Positions 20,053-47,940 of a DNA stretch of 64,000 nucleotides are shown piece by piece (positions within the stretch are counted from its first letter, which is position 1; every line of letters begins with the position of its first letter). The notes beneath the pieces are model-generated. The model had not been told where the DNA came from. It did not search any database and was given only the letters and a program-made list of their open reading frames with translations. Origin of the DNA: Halichondria panicea (lineage: Eukaryota > Porifera > Demospongiae > Suberitida > Halichondriidae); the NCBI RefSeq assembly GCF_963675165.1, contig NC_087377.1:7395122-7459121 (forward strand), in the 5' to 3' direction. The translations under genes were made by a program, and so were the position numbers.

Positions 20053-20165
20053 ACTTCTAGGTCGGGGGGGGCCTAACAGGGAGGGCCCAAAATTTTATGA
20101 CACCGGCCCCCTCAGCTGCTGTTAGTGCAGTGTCACATGAAAATGAATAATTATAGGAATATCAC

Positions 20166-21326: not shown

Positions 21327-21329
21327 GTG

Positions 21330-25478: not shown

Positions 25479-25530
25479 ATGTATTAGAGTTATTACACTT
25501 TCCAGATTGTGGCAATGGACTCTGATAAAT

Positions 25531-26306
25531 CAGAGATACAAAAGAAAGGGGATTGGAAACGAAATTTTTACGAAATTTTTGTGTGAAGCATTCCGCGTTA
25601 TAGGGCGTGGCTAAAACTACAAAGGATTATATTTATAGTCAGCATGCTCATTACCTGTCTTGACTGCTCTACAATGTGCTGTACATAGAAACAGTGAAAT
25701 TGATCATTTTTAATGTTGATTTTTCTAAAAAGTAAAGAGAATTTAGCTCTAAAAAGTCGACTAAGCAACGCAGCCACTATTACTAGACAAATAAATGCTA
25801 TGCAAGAAGAAATAGCCTTTACTATGAAGTCGTAGGAGGGACAGGCCCGTGGTGTGTCTAAAAGTATACTAAAGCAGTTTAAAGGACTATACTGCAAACG
25901 TTTATGAGCAGTACAGTTTATTTATAGCATGAAACCATTCTATGTAGCACTTAGATACATAATAACCAAGTCAAGCAATGTCCTTTGCTGTTTTGACTTC
26001 ACAGGAGGGACAGAGAAAAGTTGACATAGAGTAATTCAAGCTAAACTCAAAAAAATTGGAAACAGAGTAAAGACAACGGACTTAGAGCTTGTCAGTGGTA
26101 TAAGCTTACTTCTCTCAAGTATCTCCCAGGCCCTGAGTGATCTCTAGTGGATAGGAGAGCTAGAAACCAGGGATACAAAACCGTAGCGCAGTCCTCCATG
26201 TAATTATTTGCGAGCGCAATAATTACACGGAGTGCTTCACCGGATGTCAGTCCTTTTACATAGGGCGTGGGCGATCGTTTCCAATCCCCTTTCTTTTGTA
26301 TCTCTG
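25531..26306. mobile_element. 776-bp MITE, 7-bp target duplication GATAAAT
   Basis: Ends CAGAGATACAAAAGAAAGGG and the inverse CCCTTTCTTTTGTATCTCTG, flanked by GATAAAT at 25524-25530 and 26307-26313. A copy of exactly the same length lies inverted at 35090-35865. The internal open frames (e.g. 25598-25897) are identical in both copies because the copies are young, not because they are selected genes. No transposase. Confidence 0.88.
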
Positions 26307-26599
26307 GATAAATGGACCAACGGTAGATTACGTCATGAGGAGGCTGAGAGCCTGCAGGGTGGGTGGGGCTCACACAAGCCCCATGCATTACACAGTACAG
26401 AGCTAGAGCTAGACGCTCAAGTATCCCTGCAGCATGTAGATCTACTGTTGATTGAAGCATAGATAGTAGAAGAAGTAACGGAGTAGTCTCTCGAAACATG
26501 TCTGTCGATTTCTATATATCTATAATTGAAGCAACAATTTAAGAGGAACAGCTGGTCCAGGTCTCCTTGGTGTCCTTTCACTCCCTACACAAAGTACAA

Positions 26600-28160
26600 G
26601 CATTTAAACATTCTCGATATGGCTCCGTTGGTATCAAGTAAACCTGAAAATGCATTCGTTGGTCCATTAAAAATCCTATTTCAGTGGGTGGACCAACGGG
26701 CTGGATAACAAGCAAGAAAATAGTTTACTTACTTTGCACGCATTCTTTTTTATAGCCGTATCCGAGCTCATTTAAAAGCTTGGTGTCTTCGTTGGCATCA
26801 GGAAAACCTGCTCGTTGGTCCATACAGGAGGCCGTTTCTGGAAACTAGGTGGACCAACGGCCTGGACGACAAGTAAAAAAATAGTTCACGCACTTTGAAT
26901 ACATTCTGTGTTCCCCAGGTTGGTGTGATTATGAGCTCATTTCAAAGCTTGGTGTCTCCGTTGGCATCATTATAAACTGGAAATCCTGCTTGTTGGTCTA
27001 TGAGGTTTCCTGTTTCTGGAAACTGGATAGACCAACGGCCTGGACGACAAGTAAAAAAATAGTTCGCGCACTTTTAATGTAATGTGTTCTCCAGTTTGGT
27101 GTGATTATATGAGCTCATTTCAAAGCTTGGTGTCTCCGTTGGTATCATTATAAACTGGAAATCCTGCTTGTTGGTCTATGAGGTTTCCTGTTTCTGGAAA
27201 CTGGATGGACCAACGGCCTGGACGACAAGTAAAAAAATAGTTAGCACACTTCGAATGTGTTCTTTTTAATGTGTTCTCCAGTTTGGTGTGATTATGAGCT
27301 CATTTCAAAGCTTGGTGTCTCCGTTGGCATCATTATAAACTGGAAATCCTGCTTGTTGGTCTATGAGGTTTCCTGTTTCTGGAAACTGGATGGACCAACG
27401 GCCTGGACGACAAGTAAAAAAAATAGTTCACGCAGTTGAATGCATTCTTTTAATGTGTTCCAGGTTGGTGTGAGCAAGCTTGCATGGTGTCTCCGTTGGC
27501 ATCATTAAACTGGAAAACCTGCTCGTTTGTCCATAAGGTTTCCTGTTTCTGGAAACTGAGTGGACAATTAATGGCCTGAACGACAAGTAAGAAAATAGTT
27601 CACGCACTTTCTTTTAATGTGTTCCAGGTTGGTGTGAACTTCAAAGCTTGCATGATGTCTCCGTTGGCATCTTTAAACTAGAAAACCTGCTCGTTGGTCC
27701 ATAAGATTTCCTGCTTCTGGAAACTAGGTGGACCAACGGCCTGGACGACAAGTAAGAAATAGTTTACGCAGCTTGAATGCAATGTGTTCCAGGTTGGTGT
27801 GTCAGCTCATTTCAAAGCTTAGTGTCTCTTGTTTGCATCAATTAAAGGAAAACCTGCTCGTTGGTCCATAAGGTTTCCTGTTTTTGGAAACTAGGTGGAC
27901 CAACGGCCTGGACGACAAGTAAGAAAATAGTTCACGCAGCTTGAGCATTCTTTTAATGTGTTCCTGCATAGTTGGTGTCAGAGCTTGGTGGCTCTCCGTT
28001 GGCATCATGCAGTTACACTAAAAAACCTGGACGTAGTCGTTGGCCCATAACCTTTTCTGTTTTTGGAAACTGGGTGGACCAACGGCCTGGACAACACTGA
28101 CAGGTAAGAAAATAGTTCATGCAGCTTAGCTTGCATTCATTCTTTTATTGGAAACTCGAA
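26600..28160. repeat. Left subterminal array, about nine ~170-bp units
   Basis: Each unit holds CTCGTTGGTCCATAAGGTTT, a short hairpin (TTTCCTGTTTCTGGAAAC), then GGTGGACCAACGGCCTGGAC, GACAAGTAA, an ATAGTTCACGCA block, GTGTTCCAGGTTGGTGTG and GGTGTCTCCGTTGGCATCAT. GGACCAACGG-type cores occur near 26700, 26855, 27030, 27212, 27396, 27560, 27730, 27896 and 28078, with spacing of 155-185. A reverse-complement array is at 45320-46370. Confidence 0.85.
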
Positions 28161-28460: not shown

Positions 28461-29088
28461 ACAGGGGCGTAGGCAGGAATTTGAGGAAGGGGGGGCTGAG
28501 CTGTTCGTGCCAGAAAGTACTTGGCGCGGAGCGCCGAAAATTCCGGTTACCGGAAGCCACACCCCCTAATTAATGACTCATTGCGCATGTGCAAGAAATA
28601 GCCACACCTTGCTTCAATTAATAATACCGTATAGCGCGAAATTTTCGAGGGGCTTAATTTTCGCGGATTTCGTGGGTTGGAATTCTACACGAAAATTAAG
28701 TCCACGAAAAGTGTTCATTAATAAGAATTACCTGCTATCATGCAAATATTTAAAGGCGTGGCTTCCGGTAAGCAGTCATTCCGCGAACATTGTGCAACGA
28801 AATGGCTTTTAGAGGCTAATCCACGAAATATAAGTGCCTCGAAAATTTCGCGCTATACGGTATTGCTAAAGCTAGCTAGCTAGCCGTAGCTAGCTAGCTT
28901 AGTTGCACTAAAGAATCAAAGTTACTAGTATAGTATAGCTAGCTCTTGGACATGCTGTTTGTCTGCCACTAATCTATACCTAATTCCCAGGCTGAAGACT
29001 CATCAGAGAAGGTGGGGCTCTTAGTGCAGTTTTTGCAGAGAAAGGGGGGGCTCCAGCCCCCAAAGCCCTCCCCCTCCCTACGCCCCTG
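28461..29088. mobile_element. 628-bp GC-ended MITE with 5-bp target duplication
   Basis: Ends CAGGGGCGTAGGCAGG and the inverse-like CCTCCCTACGCCCCTG, flanked by AATGA (28456-28460 and 29089-29093). Runs of GGGGGGG/CCCCC sit just inside. It carries another MITE at 28626-28861. Confidence 0.8.
28626..28861. mobile_element. Nested MITE of the 'accgtatagcgcgaa' family
   Basis: Begins ACCGTATAGCGCGAAATTTT and ends AAATTTCGCGCTATACGGT, an inverted repeat of about 25 bp, flanked by TA-rich sequence. It is nested inside the GC-ended MITE. Further copies lie at 9004, 55341 and 58916. Confidence 0.85.
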
Positions 29089-29299
29089 AATGACATTTAA
29101 GCTAAGAGCTCAGCTTGTCTACTCACTAGTGTATTTTTGTCAAATGTGGTTATACCCAAAACATGTGTGGTGATAATATTGTATAAGCATTGCTATTTGA
29201 TGTGGTTAATTTTAAACCTGACTAATCATTGAGTTATGCATGCTTCAGTAAGAAAAAGTCTCTCAGTTGAGTTCTTTGTTGTTTGACTATCTTCTATAA

Positions 29300-31485
29300 A
29301 TGGGTGATTCTAATGAGGAGCAGGCTGCTGCCACAGGCAGCGAATAAAATGAGTTCGAAGTAGCCTCGGTGAGCATTATGCAGCCTAACTAATTAGACTA
29401 AACTATAGTTCTGAATTGCTCTTCTGTGTACAGTAGTAGATATATATGGTTCGCTGCATGATAGACCTTTCTCCTATATCCGCTATATATAATCAAGGGT
29501 AAGGAATTCCAAGTTGGTTTGAACCCGAGATCTACCAAGCGTGACGTTGTTGATGAATCCAATTCACAGCATCCAGCAAGTTATTGATATGATGAGCTAT
29601 ATATATGCACACATGCATGGCATGCACGTTTGTTTACCCATGCAGGAACCAAAAAAACAAAAGTCTTGTGAAGAAGATGTAAGGTTGCGTGCACGTAATT
29701 ATAAAGTATAGAGGTGTAAATGTATAATGGCTTAGTATTCACTTGCTGTGTATATACAGCAAACCTTCGCAACATCTGCTTTTGCTAGGGCTCGATCCCG
29801 GAACTGTAAGCAGTGGAAGTCATTGTGCTCACGGGTATGTTTGATTAATGTTGTTTAATATGCATTTTAATTGGATTTGCCAGACATAATAATTATTGTA
29901 GCTACTATATCAGACAGGTCTCATCAAGAGATTCTTGTTCCTGCATGGATTTAACTATAGGAATACTGATGATGTGTATTTCCTCGCTTATCTGAGTTGG
30001 TCCATTTCTGTGGCTTAGCCTATATATAATGATTAATATGTATAACGTACTTCAATGTTGTTTTATTATATATATATTCGGATATATAATTATAGGCCGA
30101 TAAATGGCTAAATGGAAAGAAATACCAAGTGATTGTACCCAACTTTGCCATTCTCTATTACAAGAGGGAGAGGGGCCGGCCCTCTCAAATTGTTTGGAGA
30201 GGTAGGTCTACTACAAACCACAACACACTTGATTCATCGTATATATACCTATAATTATATCGACATGCAGGGTCTGAACATGCATATGAAATCGTTCGTT
30301 GAGAATGAAGCTGTAAGAGATGAATTTCTTAGAGCTGCAGCACAGTCAACATCGTCCAGTTAGTTTATGATGCTGTAGACATACAAATACACACACGCGC
30401 ACTCACTCACATACAACATGCCATATAGAATCAGAACAACCAGCTGGAAGGCAAAACTATCCACCTATACAGTACCAACCATTCCCATCTCAACAACAGA
30501 TTTCTCAACCTTGAAGTACAATGTGCTTGGAAAGCTTTCCAATAGAGTTCTCAACCCGTTTCGTAAGCATGCAAGTTATGATACACTTATAATAAGTGTT
30601 ACATTATCTTCATGCAGGTAAGAAAAAGGGATTTTATTGTGACTTAGACAGGCTGAGGTGGTTTCCGGAAGAACTCCGCTTCCAGTCGCCAATTCTGTCA
30701 CTTTTTACTGAGCAGGCAACACAAGACATTGTTCAATTCTTAAGCATGTGCATTCGATCACCTGCAAAGATGGATATACAGTGTGTGAAGGTATATAATT
30801 TATAGAGTGCACATGCATGGGGTAATCATAAAAGTTAAATTATTGACTTGCTTAGTTGCCCCAAATGCAATTTTTTTAGTCTTCTTAGATACTCCACGCA
30901 CTCCTTGTTTCGTGATGGGTTTTATTTCACGAATATTTATTGTATTAGGTGGCCGCTCAGGATGGAGTTGAATGTGGCATTCATGTGATACACAATATTA
31001 TGACAATGGTCAAGGTACGTGATGGTATATACGTAAAAGCATTCATGAGTATTTACACTAACACAATTGATCAGTTTTCTGGGCTACCTGCATCAAAGCA
31101 CCTGCAAAAGTCTGTAAACACTGCTGAATTACGTGGATTGATCCTGTTATCATGCTACTCCACTCAACAAAGGTAAAAAAAATGATTTTGGCTACTCCCT
31201 CATGTGTACCTATATACTGCAGCCAAAAGACATCTCACAGAGTCAGAAGGAGTAAAGGGTTGCTAATACAGATCTGCAGGTGAGTACACCATGCACACTG
31301 ACACACACTCATGATTGTGTTCATGCATTCACAAACGTTGATTGCTATGTACTTGTATATAATGTGTATATGAGCATGCTTCACTGCATGCTGGTATATA
31401 AACTATACCGACATTGTCTACTATGCAATAGACTGATGATGATGCCAGTGTATCTGTTAAGAAGACAGCAAAATCGAAGCCTTAA
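29300..31485 (+). pseudogene. Multi-exon gene with Ulp1-like protease motif
   Basis: Proposed exons: 29300-29368 (MGDSNEEQAA, in-frame TAA after codon 15); 29498 to about 29576; 29646-29678; 29760-29834; 30096-30201 (WLNGKKYQVIVPNFAILYYK); about 30271-30359; 30430-30525 (Gln/Pro-rich); about 30615-30790 (LRWFPEELR...); 30950-31014; 31078-31172; and a last exon ending TAA at 31483-31485. Exon 30950-31014 reads VAAQDGVECGIHVIHNI, fitting the Gln-x(4-6)-Cys-Gly end of Ulp1/SENP-type (C48) cysteine proteases. A matching catalytic His and Asp are not certain. Such proteases accompany several eukaryotic DNA transposon families. The intron after 29576 would need a GC-AG donor. The early stop and one phase mismatch near 30201 suggest decay. 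The first exon is duplicated inverted in the right terminal repeat. Confidence 0.5.
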
Positions 31486-32351
31486 CTGCTAACATTAATT
31501 GTATAGCTTGTATAGTATAGCTCAGAATGTTTATTTACTAATTATGTGCAATAATATAGTTACTAGTTTCCCTCATATAGTTTCTCATCTGTTATTCCCC
31601 CATGCATATAATTATATGATTGTGTTGTGTGTAATTTCTTCAGTCACCCCTTATTGTAACGCATGCATGATAAGTCAGAACAAGTGACGCCACAATTTTA
31701 AATTTTATATGGTTGTAAAAACAAAAAGTGCATGACAAGACCATCATGCATGTGAGTACAATAAAATTATACAATATTATACTTATAGTTTTTCTGATTG
31801 TGATATACCATAGATAAAATCCACAATGTGTGAGGAAATTTCTTTTATTCAGTGACGATTTGATTCTCTTCAAGCATGAATTGTTCTACCATCTGGCTGT
31901 TCAAGGCATCATATTGTCTATATAGGTGCTCATTTTGTAAGCACCACTGCATCCTGTATGATATATAAGTGCATGGTAATTAAAATCATATAATATACTT
32001 AACATACAATTATTATATACCTGAATGATTTGGCCAATGGAAATGATCTACTAGAAACCGACTGTGCCTGAAAAAGGAGGGCTCTCTATTCAAGCAGTAT
32101 TGGTGCATGCAGGTTGCAACTATTGTCGTATAATTATGATGACTTCAGGTGCTGCAGATACAAGGGCATATAATTATATTATTATGCAATTGCATGCCGG
32201 AAGAGTTCGTCCCGATATAGCATTTATACCTGATGAGAATCGTTCATATAAGATAGTGAAAGGAATGTTGGGGGATTCCTGAACTTCCATCAGTTAGAAT
32301 CCATAGCAAATTCCTATACAATATTGATGCAAATTAGTGTACCATAATTAT
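31486..32351. other. No gene seen
   Basis: Intergenic space between the + strand protease-like gene and the - strand zinc-domain gene. The short frame 32064-32282 has no recognisable motif. Confidence 0.4.
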
Positions 32352-32536
32352 TACTAGAATGTTTTGCGAGCATCAAACATTTGCAAATTTTGTGAGGGTT
32401 GATCAATAAAATCCGCAAAACCTAAATTATTACTAGTAAATACTTGCCAGAACACAATAGTTAGATAGCAAAGGGTCAAATTTTCTGCTGATTTGGCTCA
32501 TTCGCAAAGGTTTTTCACCCGCAAAATATTCTAGTA
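32352..32536. mobile_element. 185-bp MITE
   Basis: Ends TACTAGAATGTTTTGCGAG and inverse-like CCGCAAAATATTCTAGTA, bordered by ATTAT-type AT-rich sequence. No coding capacity. Confidence 0.7.
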
Positions 32537-32739
32537 ATACAGTATGAGGCGTAATAATTATAATTATCATGCATGCAGCATTACCATGCTGACAATATAC
32601 AGAGTAAATATCCCCTGTAGCAGTGATGGATGTCTTGAGCTTTTTTTTTGTACATACAGAGGATTTAGAACTGTCAGCCTTATAAATCTTTTGTTTTCTT
32701 AGTGAAGGAAGCTTTGGAAAGTACGATATCACATTAATG

Positions 32740-35700
32740 TCAGTGTGCATGGTCACCAGTACTAGACTCTGTGAAGTCTTGCGTAAATGGGGCTAATGAT
32801 AATTCCACAAGCCTTTTTAGTATAGGCTGAAATGCTTCAGTGGGGTAAGAAGGAAGACATTCAATTAAAGTGTACAGTACTGGAGCTTCCTTTTGTAGAA
32901 AGGCCATCTTTTTTGCATTTGACTTCAAGGAGCCAGAAGACTCCATTTCCTTTAGCATTTTGTGCACTTCTTCTGTAGGTGGTACCAAAGCACACACATG
33001 CAGGTGATGCTGAACTGAGAGCTTGCAGTAAATTAATCCAGTGCTTGCAACAGGAGACAGCTGTATCAGCCTCGTTGACTTCTTTAGCTATTGTGGTGAT
33101 AAGTTTGACCAAACTTGGTGCGTGCAAATGTAGTAATTCTAGAAGAGAAGTGAATTCATGCTGGCTTATACACTTATTTGTAGTAAACATCTTCAGCTGC
33201 GTGCGTGTTGTCTTGTTGTTTATGTATATCCGATCATGGAAACTAGTGTTGAAAGAAAATAAATACAGTTCTGTAACTTTTCAGCTGTCTGCATGATCCT
33301 AAACTTATCACAACAATAATTGCTGAATAAGTAAAACAGCTTTCGCCACACTGTATATATGATTACTATGATGAGAGGCACCTTCTACAAATGGATTCAA
33401 GTTTTGAATAAATCTGTGCATGCATGCTTGGCAAGGTTTGTTTTAGCTCAGGGAGGACTATCATTATAATTATATATAATCATTATACATGCAGTGTTTG
33501 ATCACATGGGAAAATTTGCACTTATCTTCCAGTACATGCAGCTGATATAGGGGATGAGGTTTTATGAACTCCAGAACCGTTGAGTTGGGACTTCCAGGGC
33601 ATAAGGTCTTTTCTGAATGCTAAACTAGTAGCATCCATGACAACAATGGGTGGACAATCTCCACACGCAGTGCACTGAAATCCTACTTGATAATCAATGT
33701 CTAACGGGTCAAGAAAGGCATACCACGACAACCGATAGTGATTGTATATGTAAACATATACTTATTAAACTGATCGCCGAATCCTGCATCTTCATGGTTT
33801 TTAACCAACACACAATACTGGGTATATATAGTTGTTCTGAAGAGGAAATGTATCGTTAATAGTCAAAGTGCACACACATGCAACCTTCCCAAAAGGAATT
33901 GATGCATAAAACCTCGCAGAATTTAACTTCATAGGATACCAGGAACTTGCCCATATTCAATAATCCTACTAGTTGGCCATCAACTTCTTTACGTTTCTTA
34001 CATCCTGAGCAATACCTAACATGCACTGTTTGGTCAATATAATAATTGTTATGGATTTATACTTCTAAAGCTACCTACCATTTGCATTGAAAACTGTATT
34101 GAACAGTATAATTTTGCTCCGTACAGATTCCTGCTTGTCTTCTTCATCTCGTGTAAGCGTACTGCACACTTTACAATATGTGTCGACTGAGCCCAAAATA
34201 GAAGTGTTGTTTACAATGTTGAAGCGATCAGCTACAGTACATGCCAGTTGTTGAGACAATTCACTTGATAAATTGAACGGTATACTGCTTGATGAAAGGG
34301 ACCGATACTGATGCACGTGCACTTGTCTATTCTGCTGCACACTATAGACATATCTTTTGCAATTTTATTGAGGCAGTCATGTTTATCCTCATCCGGGCTA
34401 TTCAATGCTTTCTCGACAATGTCCACATGTGAACAGTGTTGTTTATTGTATTTGCATGTACAACAGTACAGACCCCTTAATTGTTTATCATCAATACGAA
34501 CTTGTATATCAGCTCTTGTACATACCGCCTGCCCAATAGAGCATACAACCTGTAAATCATTATAATTATATAGTTGTGATTGGAGACGTACATGCATGCA
34601 CAATAGTGTCCAACTTACCTCTGTGCCAACATTTATACTGTAGGAGGTGTCCTCCTTGTGAGGTTCAATATTCAAAGTATACGAATGATCTGAATGGGTA
34701 TGAGGATAATTCATAAATATTAGCTGTGCATGCACTTTTTTAGAAGACATGTACCTGATAATTCTTGAGCTGATGTAATGTTGTGAATATTGTCAGTCTC
34801 TTGGATAATCAGTCTAGTTGCTTCGATGTGGATACATTCAGAGCCAACAATGCTTGTGAATGCATCATATGTGGAATCAACCGAAGTGGAGCAGCTATTT
34901 AGTAAGTGGCCACGTGCACTATCACAACTGCACCAGTATACCCACTGTATACCATCACTGAAGTGCAACCCACAGCGTGAGACGAAAAGAAACTCCATGC
35001 TCTGTGAAGTTAATAGATCAACAGACCAACTACATGAATATAATTATACTTCATCTCTCTATAATTATATTATATGCATGCAATTATACCAGAGATACAA
35101 AAGAAAGGGGATTGGAAACGATCGCCCACGCCCTATGTAAAGGGACTGACATCCGGTGAAGCACTCCGTGTAATTATTGCGCTCGCAAATAATTACATGG
35201 AGGACTGCGCTACGGTTTTGTATCTCTGGTTTCTAGCTCTCCTATCCACTAGAGATCACTCAGGGCCTGGGAGATACTTGAGAGAAGTAAGCTTATACCA
35301 CTGACAAGCTCTAAGTCCGTTGTCTTTACTCTGTTTCCAATTTTTTTGAGTTTAGCTTGAATTACTCTATGTCAACTTTTCTCTGTCCCTCCTGTGAAGT
35401 CAAAACAGCAAAGGACATTGCTTGACTTGGTTATTATGTATCTAAGTGCTACATAGAATGGCTTCATGCTATAAATAAACTGTACTGCTCATAAACGTTT
35501 GCAGTATAGTCCTTTAAACTGCTTTAGTATACTTTTAGACACACCACGGGCCTGTCCCTCCTACGACTTCATAGTAAAGGCTATTTCTTCTTGCATAGCA
35601 TTTATTTGTCTAGTAATAGTGGCTGCGTTGCTTAGTCGACTTTTTAGAGCTAAATTCTCTTTACTTTTTAGAAAAATCAACATTAAAAATGATCAATTTC

Positions 35701-36164
35701 ACTGTTTCTATGTACAGCACATTGTAGAGCAGTCAAGACAGGTAATGAGCATGCTGACTATAAATATAGTCCTTTGTAGTTTTAGCCACGCCCTATAACG
35801 CGGAATGCTTCACACAAAAATTTCGTAAAAATTTCGTTTCCAATCCCCTTTCTTTTGTATCTCTGATTATACGCACGAAAAAGATAATATACTTACATTC
35901 AAAGAGGAATCGATTCTATTGATTCCCTGTATAACAAACGACTGGAGAGAGTTGTCCAATGAGTTGAAAGCACACTGTTCATGTACACTGATGAGATATG
36001 CAGACAGCAATGGCACTGGAATTCCAGACGGCTCTGTTTCTGACTTTGAAACATTATCCTGCAATGGCATGATTGTAGAGATCTAATGTTTGAGTTTGTA
36101 CAATTACCTGTACTTTGTATCCGGCTTGACTTATATTGTCATAATTATCCATCAAAAGGCTCAT
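32740..36164 (-). pseudogene. Multi-exon zinc-domain gene of the 22-kb element
   Basis: Proposed exons on the minus strand: 36164-36108 (ATG), 36058-35897, 35001-34755, 34689-34619, 34549-34079, 34025-33885, 33783 to about 33522, and about 33190-32740. Splice phases agree for the first five. Features: C-x-C and Cys residues near SRCGLHFSDGIQWVYWCSCD; a SWIM-like LRGLYCCTCKYNKQHCSHVD (C-x-C ... C-x-H); YCKVCSTL; YCSGCKKRKEVDGQLVGLL; QCTACGDCPPIVVMDATSLAF. The last two resemble the C-terminal half of HMGXB3-like proteins as I recall them. Frame breaks near 34347, 33745 and 32990 show decay. A 776-bp MITE sits in the second intron. The role may be DNA binding or transposition; no DDE catalytic core was identified. 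Confidence 0.55.
35090..35865. mobile_element. 776-bp MITE, 7-bp target duplication ATTATAC
   Basis: Inverted, nearly identical copy of 25531-26306, flanked by ATTATAC at 35083-35089 and 35866-35872. It is inserted in an intron of the minus-strand gene, so splicing need not be affected. Confidence 0.9.
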
Positions 36165-36897: not shown

Positions 36898-36963
36898 GAC
36901 CACAGCCATGGTATATGGCAGCTATACCCTAGTGTATAACTGCCATATACCATGGCTGTGGTC
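36898..36963. repeat. Hairpin with 24-bp perfect arms
   Basis: Arms 36898-36921 (GACCACAGCCATGGTATATG...) and 36940-36963 are exact inverse complements with an 18-base loop. It contains the palindrome CCATGG in each arm. Confidence 0.88.
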
Positions 36964-37527
36964 AAACTACATGTACAGCTAGAACTGAATACAGTATCCC
37001 ACCTTTGCAACAAAATTGACACACTGTTTCAATTAAAACAATGACACACTACTCAATTCAATCAATATTAGCAATATTAGAGTTAGAGAGAATTCAATAC
37101 AAAACAGACTACTAATGATTTTAGTCAACATAAAAAGAGCCAAGTTCGAGCGATGAATAGTTCCAAAAAGGAGGCAAATTTGAAAGAACTCCGTGATCGT
37201 GAATCGAACGATACTGGTTTGTTTGTGTTGCTTTTTTTCAACTTTCAACATTGGTTGTCACAACCTGCTTATTACATTGCTGCATGGGACCAGGAGCAGT
37301 AAGAAGGGTCCAGACTGCCAAGTGTTTCTCAGACTAAAGAGACTGCACTGCACTGGGCCAGTACAGTAGGCTTGTGGAATGATATTTTGGGGTACATTTG
37401 CACTCTTTGTAGACAAGTAGCACCAGTGTACTTTCTTGAAGTGCCTTCTATAAAGATGCAGAAACACAGCCTTCACAATTGCTTGCTTCTAAACATAGTA
37501 GTACAGTTCTAAACATAGTACAAGCCA

Positions 37528-39213
37528 GTTAAACTATGGCCTCTCGTGGTATATTTGCTTTACACGCTCGAGTAATCAGATAAACCATAGATGATACAGT
37601 ACTGACGTGGATATGAAACGTTTCAGGATTCCGGTATTCTGCTTGAAGCTATCATAGTAACGGGCATATCCGAGGTAATTTACTAGTTTTCATAAATTAG
37701 GCAATTTGTTCCAAATAAACGCCGAGGGAATGATCGAGGTTATACCAAGCAGCTGTGTAAGTGAGTTGGCAGAACTGGCCAGAGACAGACAAAAGAGAAT
37801 CTATGTATTAACAGAGAGGATATTGATGCTGCAAGTGTATTAAGCGAAGACAGTAGTAGTGACTGTGAGGAGGTAGAATGAGTAGAGGAAGTACAGTCCA
37901 GTGCAAGATGATATTTAACTATTAAATTAAGTCTATAATTATTATTTTATAGTAGATCTACCCCTGTACCCATGTAATTATATCCAAAAGCAAATCACTC
38001 AATGTTGGTAGCATGCATGTAGATCAAAAGAAGTGTGGCTGACTCATAACACTAGCATGAGATAAGCAAACGGGTGAAAATTGTTGATGATCTGTACGTG
38101 TACATGCTAATAGAATTTTATATAAAATAATAGTCTGAGAGTATTAATATTATTATAGTACACGATAAACTGTTTCTTGATCGTTTACGAAGTGGCTGTG
38201 AGAGAGACACATTCCAACTTGCCGGTTCGAAATTCCTATACAAGTGTAGATACACGGCACTTGAAAAGAGATTGGACGTTTAATGCTGTCTTCACCGATG
38301 GTGTTGCCTAGAGAAGTAGCACTCGAGTAGGTTCTGGGATAAATTTCACTTGATAGTATAATTAGCTAACATTTGGCAATTGATATCTTAGCTCAGCGAA
38401 AGACAACACTGCAATTTGGAAAGTTAATGACATGTACATGTACGTGTGAACTTATTGATAGAAATCATAATAGTAGTTAGTTGTAATAAGAACGTAGGAT
38501 TAATTTTTGTTTAACATGTACATGGATTTAACAGGATTTAACATATTTTTCTTGAGGCTGTATTTTTCCAATAACTTTACTGTATGCTTAGTTAATAGAT
38601 TCTCCTGCTGCATCAATACACGAAGGTTTTCATCAGCTAAATATGCAAAAAGTAGGCTCAACAGGTTTAGAAATAATCTCACGCAAAAAGTGCAACTAAC
38701 TCATGCTTTAGCCCTTTCTATAGCACTTAAACTTTCATAACAGTTGTCAAACATAGATTCTCCTCGTAGTTTACAGTGTACTTAAAGTATTACTACTGAA
38801 TGGTAACCTGAATATTTACTGTCCAAGCCAAAAATCTCACACAAAGTATTTTTACAGGAAAATTTATGCTAAAATATGATATTCTCCCATGAGCTTAGAG
38901 AAACTAGTCTTACCTACAAGCCCACTGCAAGTATCAATGTGTGCCGGTCATTTTCACCAGTTTTCAGACAAGGAACACTGTTTACTACGCTCTGGTTGCT
39001 ATATAAACATGACAGTTACAGGGTTTCTAACATAATCTGCTCGTTACGATGATAGCTTCAGACAATTCCCGTGGACCCCTCCGGATACTAGGCCGTTTCA
39101 CATCCACGTCAGTACTGTATCATCTATGGATAAACCAACTCGGCTGCGCCTCGTGGTTTATCAGATTACTCTCGCGTGTAAATCAAATATACCACTCGAG
39201 GCCATTGTTTAAC
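37528..39213. mobile_element. 1.7-kb inverted-repeat element, no clear transposase
   Basis: About 100-bp terminal inverted repeats. The left starts GTTAAACTATGGCCTCTCGT; the right ends ACCACTCGAGGCCATTGTTT-AAC. Inner blocks TAGATGATACAGTACTGACG / CGTCAGTACTGTATCATCTA match. The interior (37630-39085) is AT-rich with only short ORFs (e.g. 60 codons at 38500-38682). It is probably a non-autonomous DNA element nested in the 22-kb unit. Confidence 0.7.
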
Positions 39214-39827: not shown

Positions 39828-39968
39828 TAAATAATAAGGATCAATCCTATTTGTTCACGATATTAATCAAAGTCGATATTGTTATGTTCACATGAATCAA
39901 TGCTAGACACAACTGAATAAATGGGTATTGGTCACTAGCTAAATACGTTCAATGTTCAATATTCTCTA
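39828..39968 (-). repeat. 3' LTR, 141 bp
   Basis: TAAATAATAAGG ... CAATATTCTCTA on the + strand, base-for-base identical to 44839-44979 by eye. It is preceded by AGTAT. Confidence 0.93.
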
Positions 39969-40007
39969 TCTCCCTTCCAAGTCTTCAACCGAAGGATGAA
40001 AGACTTT

Positions 40008-43000
40008 TTAGTAGAGCCGGTCGGGGGGTTTTCTTGTCCTTGTGGATCGGCGTAGGGGCGGGGGAGACATAGGGTGGGGTGGGGATGGAGACATAGGGTG
40101 GGGTGGAGGTGGAGGTGGAGGGGATGGAGGGCAGTCAGTAGGATTGGCCACAGGGTCCGGGGCAGGGGTGCCTGGTGAGGGTGGTTGAGTGGGAGGTGGG
40201 GCGGTGGGTAGGGTGGGAGTGACATCAGAGGGTGGGAGGAGAGCCATGTCATCAAAGATTGATCTCCGCTCCCTTGGTGGGGATACTGGGGTGTATTTCC
40301 GTAGAAATTTTCTGTTCCTTAGGGTTGGTCTGCCGGATCCATCAACGCGGATGAGGTACTGGTGGTACTGACGAACTTCAATAACTATGCCAGTGCAATC
40401 CCATTTGTTGGGATGATGGCCAGTTTGGTTTTGGAGCCGTACTCGATCCCCTACATGTAGAGGTGTGAGGGATTTAGTGTGTTCACTCCACTTCTCATGT
40501 TGAATGATGTGGCGGTGTCTTAGTGCCTTTTCTCTTAAGTTGAGGGAGTCTCTCCAAGTGTTGTGTGGGCGGTATTGGCCGGGTAGGATCTGAATGAGAT
40601 CTCTGATGGGTCTTCCAAAGACGCACATAGCTGGAGAGAGTTTGGTACTTGGGTCAGGTGTGTTTCTGTACTGGAGGATAGCTTTCTGGAAAGCATCAAT
40701 GTTGAGTGATCCGTTGCGTCCAACGTTGCCGGTAATGAGTCTCTTGACAGTCTTTACGCCAACTTCTGCTCTGCAGTTGCTATGGGGGAATGCCACAGAG
40801 CTGAGGCGATGTTGCACTCCCCAAGTTTGCATGAATTGCCTGGTGGTGTGAGCTGTAAATTCTGGGCCGCCATCTGATGACAATTCATCGGGGATACCGT
40901 AAGTTGCGAACGTTTGTCGCAGGACGTCGATCAATCCTAGGGCTCCATCTTTAGCTCTTTCGACTATGGGCCAGTTGGAGTATCTATCCACTATGACAAG
41001 ATAATTGCAACCTTTGTAGTGACAGTAGTCTGCACAGATACATTGGAAGGGGTATTCCGCGAGGGTTGGTGGTGTGGGGGGAAGTGCCGACTGTGATGGA
41101 GCCATTCTGTTGCAGGGCGAGCAATTGGTGCGAGTGGCTTGGATGTCCTGTGTGATGCCAGGCCAAAAGATGGATGATTCCGCTTTTGAGATCATACTTG
41201 CTGTGCCTTGGTGGGCAGCGTGGAGAGCAGATAGGCATGCAGGTCTCAAAGAGGGTGGTATAACGATCCTGTTCTTGTATATCACAACGCCGTCGCTGCT
41301 GTAGAGGTGGTTTCTGTGTTGGTGATATTCTCTGATGGATTGTGGTAGGTCGCTTTTGAGTGCGGGGATACCGTCTTCGATGGTGGACAGCAGGAGGAGC
41401 ATGTTGTCATCAGATGATGTAGCCGTCTGAACTTGCTCCCAATTCACAGTATGTGTGGAGTGGAGTGTAGAGAGGAGGGTCTCCTGTAGTCCGTTTTCCA
41501 TCAGATGTGAGTGTAGTTGGTCCTCGGTATTGATGCCAGCGATTAGTTGGGTAGGAATGTATAAAGGAGGTGTATGGGCGATACCACTGCTATCTTTGAT
41601 GCTCTGGATATCGTCTTGGAGGCCCATTTTAGGTGGATGTGGATCACCTGTGGGGTATCTCGAGAGGGTATCAGGGGCTCTGTGCTTGATACCGGGGATG
41701 TGTATCATTTTGAAGTGGTATCGGAGAGTTTTTTCCTTGAGGTTGCGCAGTCTAGTGTTGGAGATGTTATCCATGGATCGGTCACCGAAGATCTTCAGGA
41801 GAGGTTTATGGTCCACTGCGATAGTTAGGTTTTTGCACCCAAGGACAAAGTGTCGCGCCTTGTCTAGGGCATCTGCCACTGCGAGTGCTTCGCCTTCAAT
41901 GGGGGCATACCGGGATTCGGCAGCGTGGGTGAATCTGCTCCCAACTAGAGTAATCTTCCATCCTTGTTTACAGCAAAATAGGTCAGTAGATGGGCAGGAG
42001 CAGTGTTTTTGAAACAGCCAGTAACCTATGCCGTTTTTTGACCAATCGGTTGCCAAGCATGTGGGTTTCGTTTTGTCGAAGATCTTGACTCCATTGTGGA
42101 TTTCTTCGATTATGGTCAACTTTGACTTGTCGAAAGCTTGTTGCAGATCTTCGTCCCAGTGGAATTTGTTGCTAGGCTTGAGTAGTTCTCGGAAGGGCAG
42201 CATTGTGTCAGTCGTGCTAAAGGCGTATGATACCTGGTTGATCAGACCAAACCAAGATCTTACATCTGTGAGGTTCTGTGGAGTTGGAAAGTCGGAGATA
42301 GCCCTGATATACTTCTTGCATGGTCGCACTGTGTCTGTCGTGATTTCGAAACCAGCGAATTCAACCTCGTCTTGGGCAAACCTAAATTTCTCGGGGTTGA
42401 GGGTGATGCCGTTTCTGCCACAAAGGTCTAACCAGTTGCACGCTTGAAAGAAGCTCTCTTCAATGGTATCAGACCACAGGAGGGCGTCATCCACACACTT
42501 TGTGTGATTGGGTATAGACGAGGCGATTTCGTCATATCTCCTGGTGTAGCCATCTCCCGATGAGATGTAGCCTTGCGGGGCTGTTCTGTATCGGTAGCGA
42601 CCCCAAGGTGTTATGAAGGTTGTATAGTGTCGATCTTCTGGGTGGAGTGGTACGCTGTGATATCCATTCCATGCATCAAATACCGATTTTTTCTTCCCCT
42701 GGGGGATAGATCTTGCTTGGTGGTAAGGTGATTGGGTATGGTGGGTTTCTCTGGTTGCGTGGACATTGAGGGGTTGAAAGTCGATGGTTCGTCTTGGCTT
42801 GCCATTTTTCTTAGCGCAGATGACCATGCGGTGGCACCATGTGACTGGTTCTCCAATGGGTACCGGTTCGAGGACTCCTAGCCTCACATCTCGATCTAAA
42901 TCGGCTTTGACCTCGTCTTGCCAATGGAGGGGCACAGGGATAGGTGAGTGATGAGCCGTGGGGGTTGCCTGGGTGTCGATTAGTAGTCTCATGGGTGGTC

Positions 43001-44225
43001 CATCCATCATGGGCAGGGTTTGGTGCTCACAGACGTTGAATGTGCTGGATCTGTAATAGTCCAGGAGGTATTGTGTGAGCAACTCTCTGTTGGTCTCTGT
43101 GGCTGAGTGTGGCATGGAGGTAGGGGGTGGTGGTGGTTTGGTCCTTCTGGGGCATCGACATTCCTCTTGGTGTGTGGTGGTAGCAACACTGACGGGATCG
43201 CTTGTGTGAGTCTCACATCTTTCTTGGTGCGATATGGTGACAGTATTGATGGGATCGCCTTTGCCCATTGTGGGGAAATTGTCGGGGATTATTCCCAGAT
43301 CCGTGCACCCTTCTCTGCTCAGGAACAATTTGTCGGTACAATCGGTGACGTAAACCATTTGCCTGGTTGATTTTTCTTCTCCATTGCTGTTTTTTCCAGA
43401 GAACCGCAGTATTATGGCACCTAGGATTTGTATGTTGTGGTTGTCCGCAGCGTGCATCTTGAGGTCAACGGGGATTAGGTCTTTGGTAGAGATTCCGAGC
43501 TTCTTAACTACTTGGAGGCCTGCCAAGCAACTCTGACAGCCTGTGTCGGCCATTGCACTGACAAACGATCGCTTGGGTGGTGTGCTGAGTTTGTATCCGA
43601 GTTGTCGATAGTCCTCTGACTCAACGCTCATCTGCAGTCTGACATACGGTTGAGGTTTGGAACGTTTTCTGATCCAATCTCCTGTGGGTTGGTCGAACAC
43701 ATGGTGGTCTAGCGTGACAGCTCTTGTGTTGTCCACCGCCGTGATGCCGCATAGTGTGTCGGAGATAGCATCCTGCCGTTCCGTGGCTTTTGTCGACTTG
43801 GTACTGTTCTTGGCTCTGCATACTCTCTCAAAGTGGTGTTCCTTGCCGCAATGGTTGCACGTGGTGTCGAATGCCGGGCATTCGGTCCTTCTGATCCTCG
43901 TCGGAGGGCTTCTTCCATGCCCTTTGGTTCCGCAATACGTACACGTCTCTTGTTCCTTCGGTGGGGGCCTTTTCTGCTTCTTGTATGAGCTACCGGATAG
44001 TGCGTCCGTTGCTTGGGGCAGGAGTAGGCGAGATGCTGACCGTTTGCCTGCCTCTTTTGCTTCCACAAACCTAAGAACCTGCTCCATCGTCATATCTTGA
44101 TTTTTGTCCCCCAATTTTTGTCCCCCAGTAGGTCTAATTGTATTTCGGTGTCCCCTAGGCCTTGGCATAGTACATCCTTCAGTATGGCCTCGGTGTAGTC
44201 CACGGTGGCGTCGCATCCTGTACAT
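40008..44225 (-). CDS. Pol polyprotein (zinc knuckles, PR, RT, RNase H, integrase)
   Basis: An uninterrupted 1405-codon ORF. The first ~35 codons overlap Gag in another frame and are probably not translated as such. Then: Gag-like MTMEQVLRFVEAKEAGK; Cys/His knuckles (CTYCGTKGHG, CNHCGKEHHFERVC); protease AMADTGCQSCLAG; RT with KKSVFDAWNGYHSVPLHPED and the active site KCVDDALLW, where Cys replaces the usual Tyr; RNase H with LATDWSKNGIGYW and IAVDHKPLLKIFGD. The integrase has the HHCC region, CADYCHYKGCNYLVIVDRYS, LSSDGGPEFTAHT and the Glu region HSNCRAEVGVKTV. The C-terminus is a long Pro-rich tail. It is complete and probably enzymatically competent by motif inspection, but joined to Gag only through the frame disruption at 44100-44127. 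Confidence 0.93.
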   Translation of the reverse strand: MYRMRRHRGLHRGHTEGCTMPRPRGHRNTIRPTGGQKLGDKNQDMTMEQVLRFVEAKEAGKRSASRLLLPQATDALSGSSYKKQKRPPPKEQETCTYCGTKGHGRSPPTRIRRTECPAFDTTCNHCGKEHHFERVCRAKNSTKSTKATERQDAISDTLCGITAVDNTRAVTLDHHVFDQPTGDWIRKRSKPQPYVRLQMSVESEDYRQLGYKLSTPPKRSFVSAMADTGCQSCLAGLQVVKKLGISTKDLIPVDLKMHAADNHNIQILGAIILRFSGKNSNGEEKSTRQMVYVTDCTDKLFLSREGCTDLGIIPDNFPTMGKGDPINTVTISHQERCETHTSDPVSVATTTHQEECRCPRRTKPPPPPTSMPHSATETNRELLTQYLLDYYRSSTFNVCEHQTLPMMDGPPMRLLIDTQATPTAHHSPIPVPLHWQDEVKADLDRDVRLGVLEPVPIGEPVTWCHRMVICAKKNGKPRRTIDFQPLNVHATRETHHTQSPYHQARSIPQGKKKSVFDAWNGYHSVPLHPEDRHYTTFITPWGRYRYRTAPQGYISSGDGYTRRYDEIASSIPNHTKCVDDALLWSDTIEESFFQACNWLDLCGRNGITLNPEKFRFAQDEVEFAGFEITTDTVRPCKKYIRAISDFPTPQNLTDVRSWFGLINQVSYAFSTTDTMLPFRELLKPSNKFHWDEDLQQAFDKSKLTIIEEIHNGVKIFDKTKPTCLATDWSKNGIGYWLFQKHCSCPSTDLFCCKQGWKITLVGSRFTHAAESRYAPIEGEALAVADALDKARHFVLGCKNLTIAVDHKPLLKIFGDRSMDNISNTRLRNLKEKTLRYHFKMIHIPGIKHRAPDTLSRYPTGDPHPPKMGLQDDIQSIKDSSGIAHTPPLYIPTQLIAGINTEDQLHSHLMENGLQETLLSTLHSTHTVNWEQVQTATSSDDNMLLLLSTIEDGIPALKSDLPQSIREYHQHRNHLYSSDGVVIYKNRIVIPPSLRPACLSALHAAHQGTASMISKAESSIFWPGITQDIQATRTNCSPCNRMAPSQSALPPTPPTLAEYPFQCICADYCHYKGCNYLVIVDRYSNWPIVERAKDGALGLIDVLRQTFATYGIPDELSSDGGPEFTAHTTRQFMQTWGVQHRLSSVAFPHSNCRAEVGVKTVKRLITGNVGRNGSLNIDAFQKAILQYRNTPDPSTKLSPAMCVFGRPIRDLIQILPGQYRPHNTWRDSLNLREKALRHRHIIQHEKWSEHTKSLTPLHVGDRVRLQNQTGHHPNKWDCTGIVIEVRQYHQYLIRVDGSGRPTLRNRKFLRKYTPVSPPRERRSIFDDMALLPPSDVTPTLPTAPPPTQPPSPGTPAPDPVANPTDCPPSPPPPPPPHPMSPSPPHPMSPPPLRRSTRTRKPPDRLY

Positions 44226-44725
44226 TGCTGGGTGAACTTACAGACGCTCGCCTGTCCTCTAAGTCTAGCTCCATACGCACGCACTGGTTCATCTCGGTCC
44301 TGTCTCATATTGTGCAGGGTCACCCTTGCTACCATGGTGTTTTCTTCTCTTACAGCTAGCCTTTTCATAGCTGCAAACACTTCGTCTTCAGTCATCTCGG
44401 TAAGGGTGCCCCGTGTGTTCCTAGTGAGGTCTCTTCGAAGCTCATCGTCGCAGCACTCTAGTAATTGGATGACACGGTCGGTTCCTGTCAGTCTGGTTGC
44501 CTTTACATAGTCGTCCCACCTGGACTTAAAGTACTGCCAGTCTTCTGTTGTGCCCGAGGAGGTTATGCCTGGTCTCTTCACCTTCTCGACCGCGGCTGCC
44601 TGTATTGCCCTGCTTGGTGCTTGGTGGCTGGTTGCATGGGCTGTGATCAATGCAGCGGCAATTACTGGGTCCACGTCCGGTGTGTTGTACTCGCACCCCT
44701 CTATTGGGCATCCGATTACTGGCAT
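44090..44725 (-). CDS. Gag protein
   Basis: A 211-codon ORF beginning MPVIGCPIEGCEYNTPD. An N-terminal C-x4-C ... H-x3-H zinc-finger-like element (CPIEGC ... HATSH) is followed by a capsid-like region (WQYFKSRWDDYVKATRL, LLECCDDELRRDL, VREENTMVARVTLHNMRQ, VRAYGARLRGQA). It ends soon after a 14-bp tandem duplication (44100-44113 and 44114-44127). The Pol frame reads the equivalent residues in the second copy, so Gag and Pol look like one frame split by this duplication. The start chosen is the first Met after the PBS, about 110 bases downstream. Confidence 0.85.
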   Translation of the reverse strand: MPVIGCPIEGCEYNTPDVDPVIAAALITAHATSHQAPSRAIQAAAVEKVKRPGITSSGTTEDWQYFKSRWDDYVKATRLTGTDRVIQLLECCDDELRRDLTRNTRGTLTEMTEDEVFAAMKRLAVREENTMVARVTLHNMRQDRDEPVRAYGARLRGQASVCKFTQQCTGCDATVDYTEAILKDVLCQGLGDTEIQLDLLGDKNWGTKIKI

Positions 44726-44824
44726 TCTTGGTTTTCGGTGGTGGTGCTCCTTAATTGGAGATAGTTATTTTCTGTTGCCTTCTGTTGCCTTCTGTCCGGG
44801 TTATCAGCTTCCTTTGTGTTAGTG

Positions 44825-44838
44825 AGTTGTGTCTAGCA
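44825..44838 (-). other. Self-complementary primer-binding site
   Basis: Directly after the 5' LTR, the minus strand reads TGCTAGACACAACT, the exact 14-base complement of AGTTGTGTCTAGCA inside the LTR. This is the arrangement used by self-priming elements such as Tf1, whose RNA 5' end folds onto the PBS. No match to a tRNA 3' end is evident. Confidence 0.6.
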
Positions 44839-44979
44839 TAAATAATAAGGATCAATCCTATTTGTTCACGATATTAATCAAAGTCGATATTGTTATGTTC
44901 ACATGAATCAATGCTAGACACAACTGAATAAATGGGTATTGGTCACTAGCTAAATACGTTCAATGTTCAATATTCTCTA
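44839..44979 (-). repeat. 5' LTR, 141 bp
   Basis: Identical to the 3' LTR. On the minus strand it contains AGTTGTGTCTAGCA (44925-44912), the segment complementary to the PBS. If transcription starts there, R-U5 would be about 87 nt. Confidence 0.93.
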
Positions 44980-45319
44980 AGTATCACTGTTGCTCACCGA
45001 GAATTCAAAGTCATCTTGTTCATTGCCTGTGGGAGCCTGCTCTTCATTACATTATACAGCCTAAGTATAGAATTAAGCTGATGCATATTCAGAAAGATCA
45101 GAGTTCATTAGATGTCATAATCAAACCGCAGCCAGGTTTAATCAACCACATCAAATAGCAAAGTTTATGCAACAACACCCACACACACATATTCAAAAGA
45201 TAGAGCTGTTGAACATTTTGAATGGTGTCTAACCACAGGATGTCAGGTCCCACACTGAGGCAGCATGCACTGTATGTAATAGTAGTCAACAACTGGAGAA
45301 ACATAATTATTTTCTTACC

Positions 45320-46370
45320 TGTCGTCCTGGCCCTTTAATTGGTCCATCGAATTTCCAGGAATAATTTTTATGATACTTATACGATGGGGCCCCATGCAGT
45401 TATCTTGTTTAATTAATTGATGCCAATGGAGCCACCAAACTTGGAAAGTTGAAACCAACACAATAAATGCAAGCTGCATGAACTCTTTTCTTACCCCTGT
45501 TGTCTGTTGGTCTACCCAATTTCCAGAAACTGGAAACTTTAATAGATCAACAACAGGTTTTCAATGCTAAAGGAGCCACCAAACATTGAAATGAGTACAT
45601 GAAATCAAACTGCGTGAACTATTTCTTGCTTGTCGTCCAAAGACGTTGGTCCATCCAGTTTCCATAAACAGGTAACCTTATGGACCAACGAGCAGGTTTT
45701 CCAGTTTAATGATGCCAAAGGAGACACCAAGCTTTGAAATGAGCTCACACCAACCTGGAACACATTAAATTATGCATTCAAGCTGCGTGAACTATTTTCT
45801 CACTTGTCGTTCAGGTCGTTGGTCCACCTATAGTTTCCAGAAATAGGAAACCTTATGGACCGACAAGCAGGTTTTGATGCCAACGGAGATACTAAGCTTT
45901 GAAACGAGCTGACACCAATCTGATACCAACATGGAACACATTAAATAATGCATTCAAGCTGCGTGAACTATTTTCTTACTTGTCGTCCAGGCCGTTGGTC
46001 CACCTAATTTCCAGAAAAAGGAAACCTTATGGACCAACAAGCAAGTTTTCTTTTAATTGATGCCAATGGAGACACTAAACTTTGAAAAATGAGCTGTGAC
46101 ACCAGCCTGGAACACATTATTCAAGCTGCGCGACTATTTTCTTACTTGCCGTCCAGGTCGTTGGTCCACCTAGTTTCCAGAAACAGCCTCCTATGGACCA
46201 ACAAGCAGGTTTTCCTGATGCCAACGAACCCCTGCAAGCTTTGAAATGAGCTGCCCACCTAGAACACTTTATGCAAGCTGGGTGAATTCTTTTATCAGTC
46301 GTCCAGGCAGTTGGTCCATGCACCTAATTTTAATAGGCCCCTTAGGACCAACGAGCAGGTTTTAATGATG
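45320..46370. repeat. Right subterminal array, about seven units (inverted)
   Basis: Units read TACTTGTCGTCCAGGCCGTT then GGTCCACCTA, TTTCCAGAAA, CTTATGGACCAACGAGCAGG and CCAATGGAGACAC in reverse orientation to the left array. Cores lie near 45320, 45497, 45625, 45805, 45983, 46147 and 46300. They are more diverged than the left array. Confidence 0.82.
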
Positions 46371-46727
46371 CCTGGAGCAATCAAGCAAGTGTAACATGCA
46401 ACACTGTTTGCTGTAGATCCTGTGAACAGAAGTTTGCAATGAAACGGATAAAGAAACTGGCAAACTGTAGGGCAACCCAGACATGCATTAAAAATTAAAA
46501 TGTGCATGCAGCCTTCCATATCCTTTTGCTTCAAGACATAGTACATGCTGCAGGGGGGTACTTTATATAACCATATTTTTCTGTGCTCTATTATCTATGA
46601 TATAACTAGTCTATATATCTCTAGCTAGCTGTGTGTGGTGGGGCTCACACAACAATTGCAAGCTGATACCACCCACCATGCAAGCTCTCAAGCCTCTATG
46701 ACGTAATCTACCGTTGGTCTATTTATC

Positions 46728-47624
46728 CATAGATACACGAAAGAAAGGGATGGGCAACACCCAGCACTTCGGTTGGATGAGGCGAGTTGCTAAAAAGGGG
46801 CGTGTAATGAGCAAAAAGGGGTGTGTGCACTCAAAATGTCAGTAAAGATATTAATAGTTTGTAGTATTATAGCAAACTGTGCTCTTGAGGAGACACTAGA
46901 TACACTTAGACATAGGCTATTAATCTTTTAGAGCTACTATATGCAAAGTGATGAGAAAGTGAGCTCCAAAGGGGGTGTACGTGTCAGTACACTCTACAAA
47001 CCATAACAGGTCTGTTTCCAAGTCCTTCAAATGCCATCTCTTCGATCTCACAATACAGATAAAGATACTTGTGTTCCACTTTCTAATACCTAAACTGTGT
47101 CTTAGAGCACTTCAAACTAGATTACCATGTACAGTAAGAGCAGGAGAGGTACGCAAACTTTCTGGACTTCGGACAAACGTTTCATGGTGCTGCTACTACT
47201 TCACTGCACTGAGAGCTGGAAAATATGCTTTGTTCCATGCAGTTATAAACACACTTTAATTCTGTGAAACGTACATGTTATAAAATTATTTCATATTGGA
47301 GATATAGGTACATAAACTGACAAATCGGTGTTTTTTCACACAAATCAAGCTAAACAAAAGAAAGCTCGGCACTAGCATAGCAGCTGTAGCTATCAGTAGT
47401 GCTGGGTGTATGTGTGCATGATGCCTGATTGCTTTGAATTTCTCTTTTAGGCCCCCTACGAGAAAAATAAGCAGATATAGGGATCATTGTGTACTTTCTT
47501 GAGCACAACTCGCCTCCAGCTTTGCTCGCTTTTATTCGATACAACCAGAGGGTGTGACGTCACACACTGCATTTACCTAGCATCACGTGGGGCGTTGCCT
47601 ATCCCTTTCTTTTGTGTATCTATG
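46728..47624. mobile_element. 897-bp MITE, 7-bp target duplication ATTTATC
   Basis: Ends CATAGATACACGAAAGAAAG and CTTTCTTTTGTGTATCTATG, flanked by ATTTATC (46721-46727 and 47625-47631), which is the reverse complement of the left MITE's GATAAAT. Its ends belong to the same family as 25531-26306 but the interior differs. Confidence 0.85.
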
Positions 47625-47940
47625 ATTTATCAGAGTCCATTGCCACAATCTGGAAAGTGTAATACCTCTCTATTATTATAGTCAATAATATTAATCTATA
47701 GTTGATAGGCGCTAGCTAGGCTGAGAGCAGAAGTTTAAAAGAACGCGTTAAAAGAATTTATCTCAGAGTCTATCAGCAGGTAAGCTAGTAGATTGTATTA
47801 TAATTAGTACAACCAGTAGGCTGTACTGTATAGGATTGACAGTGCAATTGTGTGTTTTCAATCATTGCACAAATTTTGATTGTAGATCATCATCTAATAT
47901 AGAGTAAGTCGCGAACTCCGTCAGACATCAAAATGCGTTA

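What the first reader, a model, noticed from the sequence alone, without database searches (positions are those of the whole stretch)
25491..47664. A 22-kb inverted-ended unit that looks like one giant DNA transposon
Both ends carry, in mirror order, the same outer terminus, the same inner motif, arrays of the same ~170-bp unit and the same exon-like block. Total inverted sequence is 2.7-3.9 kb per side. Two internal genes (Ulp1-like protease motif; SWIM-like/Cys-pair zinc protein) face each other. This matches no element type I can name with confidence. Giant transposons with internal cargo (Zisupton-like, Teratorn-like, Starship-like) are known elsewhere, but the subterminal arrays here are distinctive.
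Basis: partly seen in the sequence, partly recalled or inferred. Interest (0 to 1): 0.88.

Follow-up and report, generated by a model that had tools for sequence, protein, structure and literature searches.

The report
Sponge transposon with repeated end motifs
This is one copy of a roughly 10-kb cut-and-paste transposon family in the breadcrumb sponge, swollen to 22 kb by other DNA that landed in it; its two ends carry arrays of a repeated motif that also occurs near the very tip, which suggests many docking sites for its transposase.

Summary
The inverted-ended unit is real. It is one insertion of a DNA transposon family in the sponge Halichondria panicea (host). I count 11 two-ended sites and 3 one-sided fragments.

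It is not giant. Copies without large inserts are 10.3-10.6 kb; six extra stretches make this one 22 kb. Cores are 97-100% identical. Exact 7-bp target duplications occur at 6 of 11 sites, 6/7 here, none at 4. Empty sites were found for 3 of 5 sites searched.

The one gene recognised is a spliced KDZ transposase (PF18758), disrupted by my exon model in all 11 rows checked. No Ulp1 match lies in the window.

The distinctive part is the subterminal arrays (6 + 5 units of ~170 bp). Their word TGGACCAACG, best or tied-best conserved in 4 of 6 elements, also sits in the terminal repeat. I read the arrays as transposase-binding sites (inferred).

Filing: KDZ clade, but neither Zisupton/Dileera (8-bp duplications) nor Kyakuja (no terminal repeats). 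New variant of a known kind.

The parts
25480..25486 (.). left target-site copy TGTATTA (right copy TCTATTA, 6 of 7 match)
25487..25530 (+). outer left terminus GAGTTATTACAC...GATAAAT (first 44 bp)
25531..26306 (.). nested 776-bp non-autonomous element in the left terminal repeat, 7-bp duplication GATAAAT
26307..26377 (+). inner part of left terminal repeat, with TGGACCAACGG
26687..28141 (+). left subterminal array, 6 units
28464..30678 (.). stretch not in the other copies, in place of ~335 bp there (type not determined)
31790..34507 (-). transposase exons 6-12 by my model (31790-31954, 32022-32133, 32234-32314, 32586-33193, 33591-33835, 33887-34026, 34080-34507), disrupted
34619..35028 (-). 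transposase exon 4 by my model, disrupted
35090..35865 (.). second copy of the 776-bp element, between exons 3 and 4, duplication ATTATAC
35897..36253 (-). transposase exons 3 (35897-36058) and 2 (36108-36253) by my model
36830..39213 (.). stretch not in the other copies (type not determined)
39828..44979 (-). nested Ty3/gypsy LTR retrotransposon, 141-bp LTRs identical, flanked by AGTAT on both sides
44980..45048 (-). remnant of putative transposase exon 1 (acidic N terminus), cut by the LTR element
45467..46372 (-). right subterminal array, 5 units, inverted to the left array
46669..46727 (-). inner part of right terminal repeat, with the same word (one base different)
46728..47624 (.). nested 897-bp non-autonomous element in the right terminal repeat, at the same target GATAAAT as on the left
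47625..47668 (-). outer right terminus (GAGGTATTACAC... on the minus strand)
47669..47675 (.). right target-site copy TCTATTA

Best explanation
The unit is a KDZ-class DNA transposon that moves by cut-and-paste. Its own spliced transposase, presumably a DDE enzyme with an RNase-H-like core, recognises both ends, excises the ~10.3-kb element and inserts it with a 7-bp staggered cut. The ends are long: a terminal repeat of about 100 bp with TGGACCAACG some 45 bp from the tip, then an array of ~170-bp units with the same word, in many units also with a mirror-image partner about 27 bp away. Most likely the transposase binds this word in the tip and in the units, so each array loads enzyme and helps to pair the ends. 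Afterwards this copy decayed and gained six extra stretches, two of them small elements at the same spot in both terminal repeats. Shown: multi-copy unit, ends, target duplications, empty sites, KDZ domain, shared word. Inferred: cut-and-paste chemistry, DDE catalysis, binding to the arrays. The confidence given is for the KDZ transposon; for binding to the arrays I put about 0.5.
Confidence: 0.93

Rival explanations
1. The arrays are transcriptional elements (promoter- or enhancer-like repeats, or hairpin-forming nucleic acid) rather than transposase-binding sites.
For: The right array lies about 0.4 kb upstream of putative exon 1 of the transposase gene. Two of three stretches folded as single-stranded DNA are more stable than their shuffles (z -5.1 and -4.5).
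Against: A second array of the same unit lies at the 3' end of the gene in mirror orientation. The word TGGACCAACG is shared with the terminal repeat. The third folded stretch gave z +0.7; it was cut through the dyad, so it is uninformative.
Confidence: 0.25
2. The arrays are passive by-products: a subterminal segment amplified by slippage and unequal exchange, then homogenised between arms.
For: Units repeat head to tail, differ by small indels, and have other well-conserved words such as AAAATAGTTC. The mirror arm is not specially conserved.
Against: Unit numbers are nearly constant (5-6 left, 4-5 right in 6 elements). A leading conserved word is also in the terminal repeat.
Confidence: 0.22
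3. The 22-kb structure is a segmental inversion or an assembly artefact.
For: Inverted duplications can be misassembled; one copy (C13) does carry an inverted half.
Against: Other loci carry the same pair of ends with different flanks, target duplications and empty sites. No long reads of the window itself were available.
Confidence: 0.02
4. A true giant transposon with cargo genes (Starship-, Teratorn- or Maverick-like; these names are recalled).
For: Size of the window copy; mirror-image ends.
Against: Six extra stretches account for the excess. Copies without large inserts are 10.3-10.6 kb. No cargo domain was recognised, though the unspliced-frame scan is weak, because it missed the KDZ gene too.
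Confidence: 0.02

Closest known systems
Zisupton (KDZ clade; fish, fungi, algae, nematodes)
   Same: KDZ transposase domain PF18758, multi-exon gene, terminal inverted repeats (the last two for Pristionchus from passages of PMC9297572)
   Different: Zisupton makes 8-bp target duplications (passages of PMC12730594); here 7 bp. Two papers hold both 'Zisupton' and 'subterminal' (listing, not opened).
Kyakuja (KDZ clade; fungi)
   Same: 7-bp target duplications (passages of PMC12730594) and a KDZ-clade transposase
   Different: Kyakuja has 5'-CA..TG-3' termini and no terminal inverted repeats (same passages); here GAG..CTC with inverted repeats of about 100 bp
hAT elements such as Hermes (working analogy only)
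   Same: Subterminal repeats recognised by the transposase's own DNA-binding domain, including a quasi-palindromic pair (passages of PMC10368747)
   Different: A different transposase family; the Hermes repeats are short AAGT motifs, here ~170-bp units with a 10-base word

Membership tests
[quoted passage not shown]
   duplication exact at 6 of 11 sites, 6/7 in the window, none at 4; empty sites at 3 of 5 searched
KDZ (Kyakuja-Dileera-Zisupton) | KDZ transposase domain PF18758 | tested here: met
   35.0 bits, cut-off 26.6, in a composite of exon peptides from two copies; many homologues carry the domain. The six-frame genome search with the same model did not list this family's loci
KDZ (Kyakuja-Dileera-Zisupton) | associated Cys cluster (CxC4, PF18717) | tested here: inconclusive
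   26.5 bits against a cut-off of 26.9; precomputed in homologues P0003, P0011, P0028
KDZ (Kyakuja-Dileera-Zisupton) | RNase-H-like DDE fold | tested here: inconclusive
Zisupton or Dileera in the strict sense | 8-bp target duplications | tested here: not met
   7 bp; 8 bp for those two per passages of PMC12730594
Kyakuja in the strict sense | 7-bp target duplications | tested here: met
Kyakuja in the strict sense | CA..TG termini without inverted repeats | tested here: not met
   GAG..CTC with long inverted repeats
KDZ sub-lineage by phylogeny | position in a transposase tree with reference Kyakuja, Dileera and Zisupton | not tested
   no named reference sequences were at hand
Giant cargo transposon (Starship, Teratorn) | tens of kb with cargo genes in the unit itself (recalled definition) | tested here: not met
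   unit about 10.3 kb, one recognised gene; the excess is absent from the other copies compared
Ulp1-bearing transposon | Peptidase_C48 domain | tested here: not met
   23 matches listed in the genome, none in the window; six frames, exon by exon, so a diverged or finely split domain could be missed

The most novel reading that the evidence does not exclude
This sponge family defines a further end architecture within KDZ: 7-bp target duplications combined with long inverted repeats and two subterminal arrays, about eleven units in all. The KDZ transposase would assemble along 1-1.5 kb of each end rather than at a short terminus. If so, the arrays would be needed for mobility. That would fit the lack of short non-autonomous derivatives with these tips: of the 22 terminus matches (up to 3 mismatches), the two closest lie 7.4 kb apart, and all sit at the copies or the 1.77-Mb fragment. 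Derivatives with more diverged tips are not excluded.
Probability: 0.35. Interest if true: 0.6.

Novelty: new variant of a known kind. Interest (0 to 1): 0.42.

Why it matters
Kojima 2025 (passages) says that of the three KDZ groups only Zisupton was well characterised as a transposon with terminal repeats and target duplications. A young animal family with exact ends, empty sites and a clear repeated word gives a concrete, testable end structure for KDZ transposition: which sequence the transposase reads, and whether many subterminal sites are needed. It also shows how nested insertions can make an ordinary transposon look like a giant one.

Tried and rejected
Giant cargo transposon: rejected, because the other copies compared lack the extra DNA. 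Ulp1 protease: no match in the window. Facing genes: only minus-strand coding was recognised; the second long frame is a nested gypsy element. Segmental inversion or artefact: made very unlikely by the other copies and empty sites. Unspliced six-frame Pfam scans of one copy (also frames of two window inserts) found nothing relevant and also missed the KDZ gene, so their silence about cargo is weak. The structure comparison lists no KDZ protein; that absence says nothing. The joined-flank search gave only left-flank matches for the window site and nothing beyond its own flanks for C8 (4.03 Mb).
Full report
WHAT IS THERE. A self-comparison of the window shows mirror-image ends. Reading both ends gives outer termini GAGTTATTACACTTTCCAGATTGTGGCAATGGACTCTGATAAAT from 25487 and GAGGTATTACAC... 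inward from 47668. Both are followed, after an insertion, by the same inner segment with TGGACCAACGG (one base different on the right in this copy), then by arrays of a ~165-185-bp unit.

OTHER COPIES. An array stretch searched against the same 131-Mb genome gave 153 matches, mostly in paired, mirror-image clusters (a lower bound by the tool's own note). A 30-base terminus pattern with up to 3 mismatches gave 22 matches and 0 for its reversed control. I fetched ten stretches in 20 pieces. I count 11 two-ended sites (window C1; C4; C8 at 4.03 Mb; C8 at 6.06 Mb, followed in tandem by a second, one-ended copy; C9; C10 at 2.36 and 5.82 Mb; C12; C13; C17; C39) and three one-sided fragments (C1 at 8.24 Mb; C8 at 1.77 and 2.51 Mb; not read through). 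Copies without large inserts are 10.3-10.6 kb. The cores of 11 rows (the window, both members of the tandem pair and a partial C39 included; C13 left out) are 97.0-100% identical.

WHY THIS COPY IS 22 KB. Compared with the others, the window copy has six extra stretches. Two are a 776-bp element with 7-bp duplications (25531-26306, GATAAAT; 35090-35865, ATTATAC). One is an 897-bp element with a related terminus (46728-47624, GATAAAT read inward). One is a Ty3/gypsy LTR element (39828-44979; LTRs 141 of 141 identical; AGTAT on both sides; Pfam reverse transcriptase, RNase H and integrase). Two are of undetermined type (28464-30678, in place of ~335 bp in other copies; 36830-39213). The 776-bp and 897-bp elements sit at the same target in the left and right terminal repeats, splitting the outer 44 bp from the rest on both sides.

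INSERTION EVIDENCE. Exact 7-bp target duplications: C4 TAATAAC, C17 AATTAGC, C39 GTTCTGC, C8 (4.03 Mb) GATATCA, C12 AGACTCT, and C13 TGTTCTC (there one half of the element with its flank is inverted). The window has TGTATTA/TCTATTA, 6 of 7. None at C9 (its right tip is damaged), both C10 sites, and the C8 tandem pair. Joined flanks of five of the six sites prepared were searched (C39 was left out). C12 and C17 have a paralogous empty copy 19 kb and about 10 kb away on the same contig. The C4 junction lies 17 bases inside a dispersed repeat; I aligned one of its uninterrupted copies. Each of the three aligned empty sites has one copy of the target; in C17's a base of the target is missing. The C8 (4.03 Mb) and window sites gave none.

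HOST. A frame beside the C10 (2.36 Mb) copy is 100% identical over 98% of its length to Halichondria panicea LOC135342168. The NCBI contig lengths 6,998,024 and 6,571,531 equal those of contigs C10 and C13 here.

THE ARRAYS. Allowing one mismatch, TGGACCAACG or its complement occurs 26 times in the window copy (25 in terminal repeats and arrays, one in the 28464-30678 stretch) and once in the remaining 41.8 kb. In the window copy nine such words have a mirror partner CGTTGGTCCA starting 32-37 bases upstream, often with an inner GTTTCC/GGAAAC pair. Because the units were picked by the motif, I repeated the comparison with units picked by a different anchor (TTCAAAGCTTGGTGTCTCC). TGGACCAACG was then the best or tied-best conserved 10-mer in 4 of 6 elements (W, C17, C9, C10a) and was outranked in C4 and C8b. 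The mirror arm scored only 0.48-0.65, no better than the unit average of 0.60-0.70, so the word is the firm feature and the dyad the weaker one. Unit counts were 6+5 in four elements, 5+5 in C4 and 6+4 in C10a. The same word lies about 45 bp inside the tip. An 11-base match between terminal repeat and unit is reached in 10 of 2000 dinucleotide shuffles. A 34-base signature of the unit has 112 matches in the genome and 0 for the reversed control; those listed (capped list) lie in the loci above. Position, mirror orientation and sharing with the tip suggest transposase-binding sites. This is inference.

HOW IT MOST LIKELY WORKS. Transposase loads on the words in both arrays and on the one near each tip, the ends pair, and the enzyme cuts at GAG/CTC and joins the ends to target DNA with a 7-bp stagger. 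Hermes is a published precedent for own-transposase binding to subterminal repeats, including a quasi-palindromic pair (passages of PMC10368747). It is an analogy, not kinship.

FILING. The transposase places it in KDZ. Kojima 2025 (PMC12730594, abstract and passages) gives 8-bp duplications for Zisupton and for the Dileera element Zisupton-1_PGr, and for Kyakuja 7-bp duplications with CA..TG termini and no inverted repeats. This family has 7-bp duplications with long inverted repeats and GAG..CTC tips, so I do not file it under any of the three. The Pristionchus paper (PMC9297572, passages) found terminal repeats but no duplications. Paper searches: 67 papers with Zisupton or Kyakuja, 30 listed; 12; 0; 20, 15 listed; 2 with both Zisupton and subterminal; 2; 0. 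Apart from the three papers named in this report by PMC number and call, I saw listings only. None of the listings showed a report of subterminal arrays in this clade, but the original Zisupton and KDZ papers were not held, so one there cannot be excluded.

VERDICT. A real, well-delimited transposon family: an ordinary class with an unusual end architecture. Interest moderate.

Noticed in passing
window 25531-26306 and 46728-47624: Two different but related small elements sit at the same target (GATAAAT) in the left and right terminal repeats, which points to strong site preference. They have CA..TG tips and 7-bp duplications, as reported for Kyakuja, so a KDZ relative might move them.
   Followed up: partly
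G000 C8:6064139-6082990: Two almost identical copies in tandem, with the junction exactly at one transposon tip and the second copy starting just before the exon-1 ATG; looks like one-ended or aberrant transposition.
   Followed up: partly
G000 C13:1824000-1833570: A copy with one half inverted together with its flank; the 7-bp target copies still match in the inverted sense.
   Followed up: partly
G000, 53 KDZ match rows: KDZ domain matches elsewhere in this genome, none at this family's loci; their ends were not examined.
   Followed up: no
window 5517-8132, 10037-13586 and 20157-22723: Ty3/gypsy-type and endonuclease/reverse-transcriptase frames lie left of the element; the window is dense in mobile elements.
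   Followed up: partly
terminal regions of copies C8 (4.03 Mb), C10 (5.82 Mb), C12: These copies also carry foreign sequence within about the first 100 bp of one end, so the tips seem to attract insertions.
   Followed up: no
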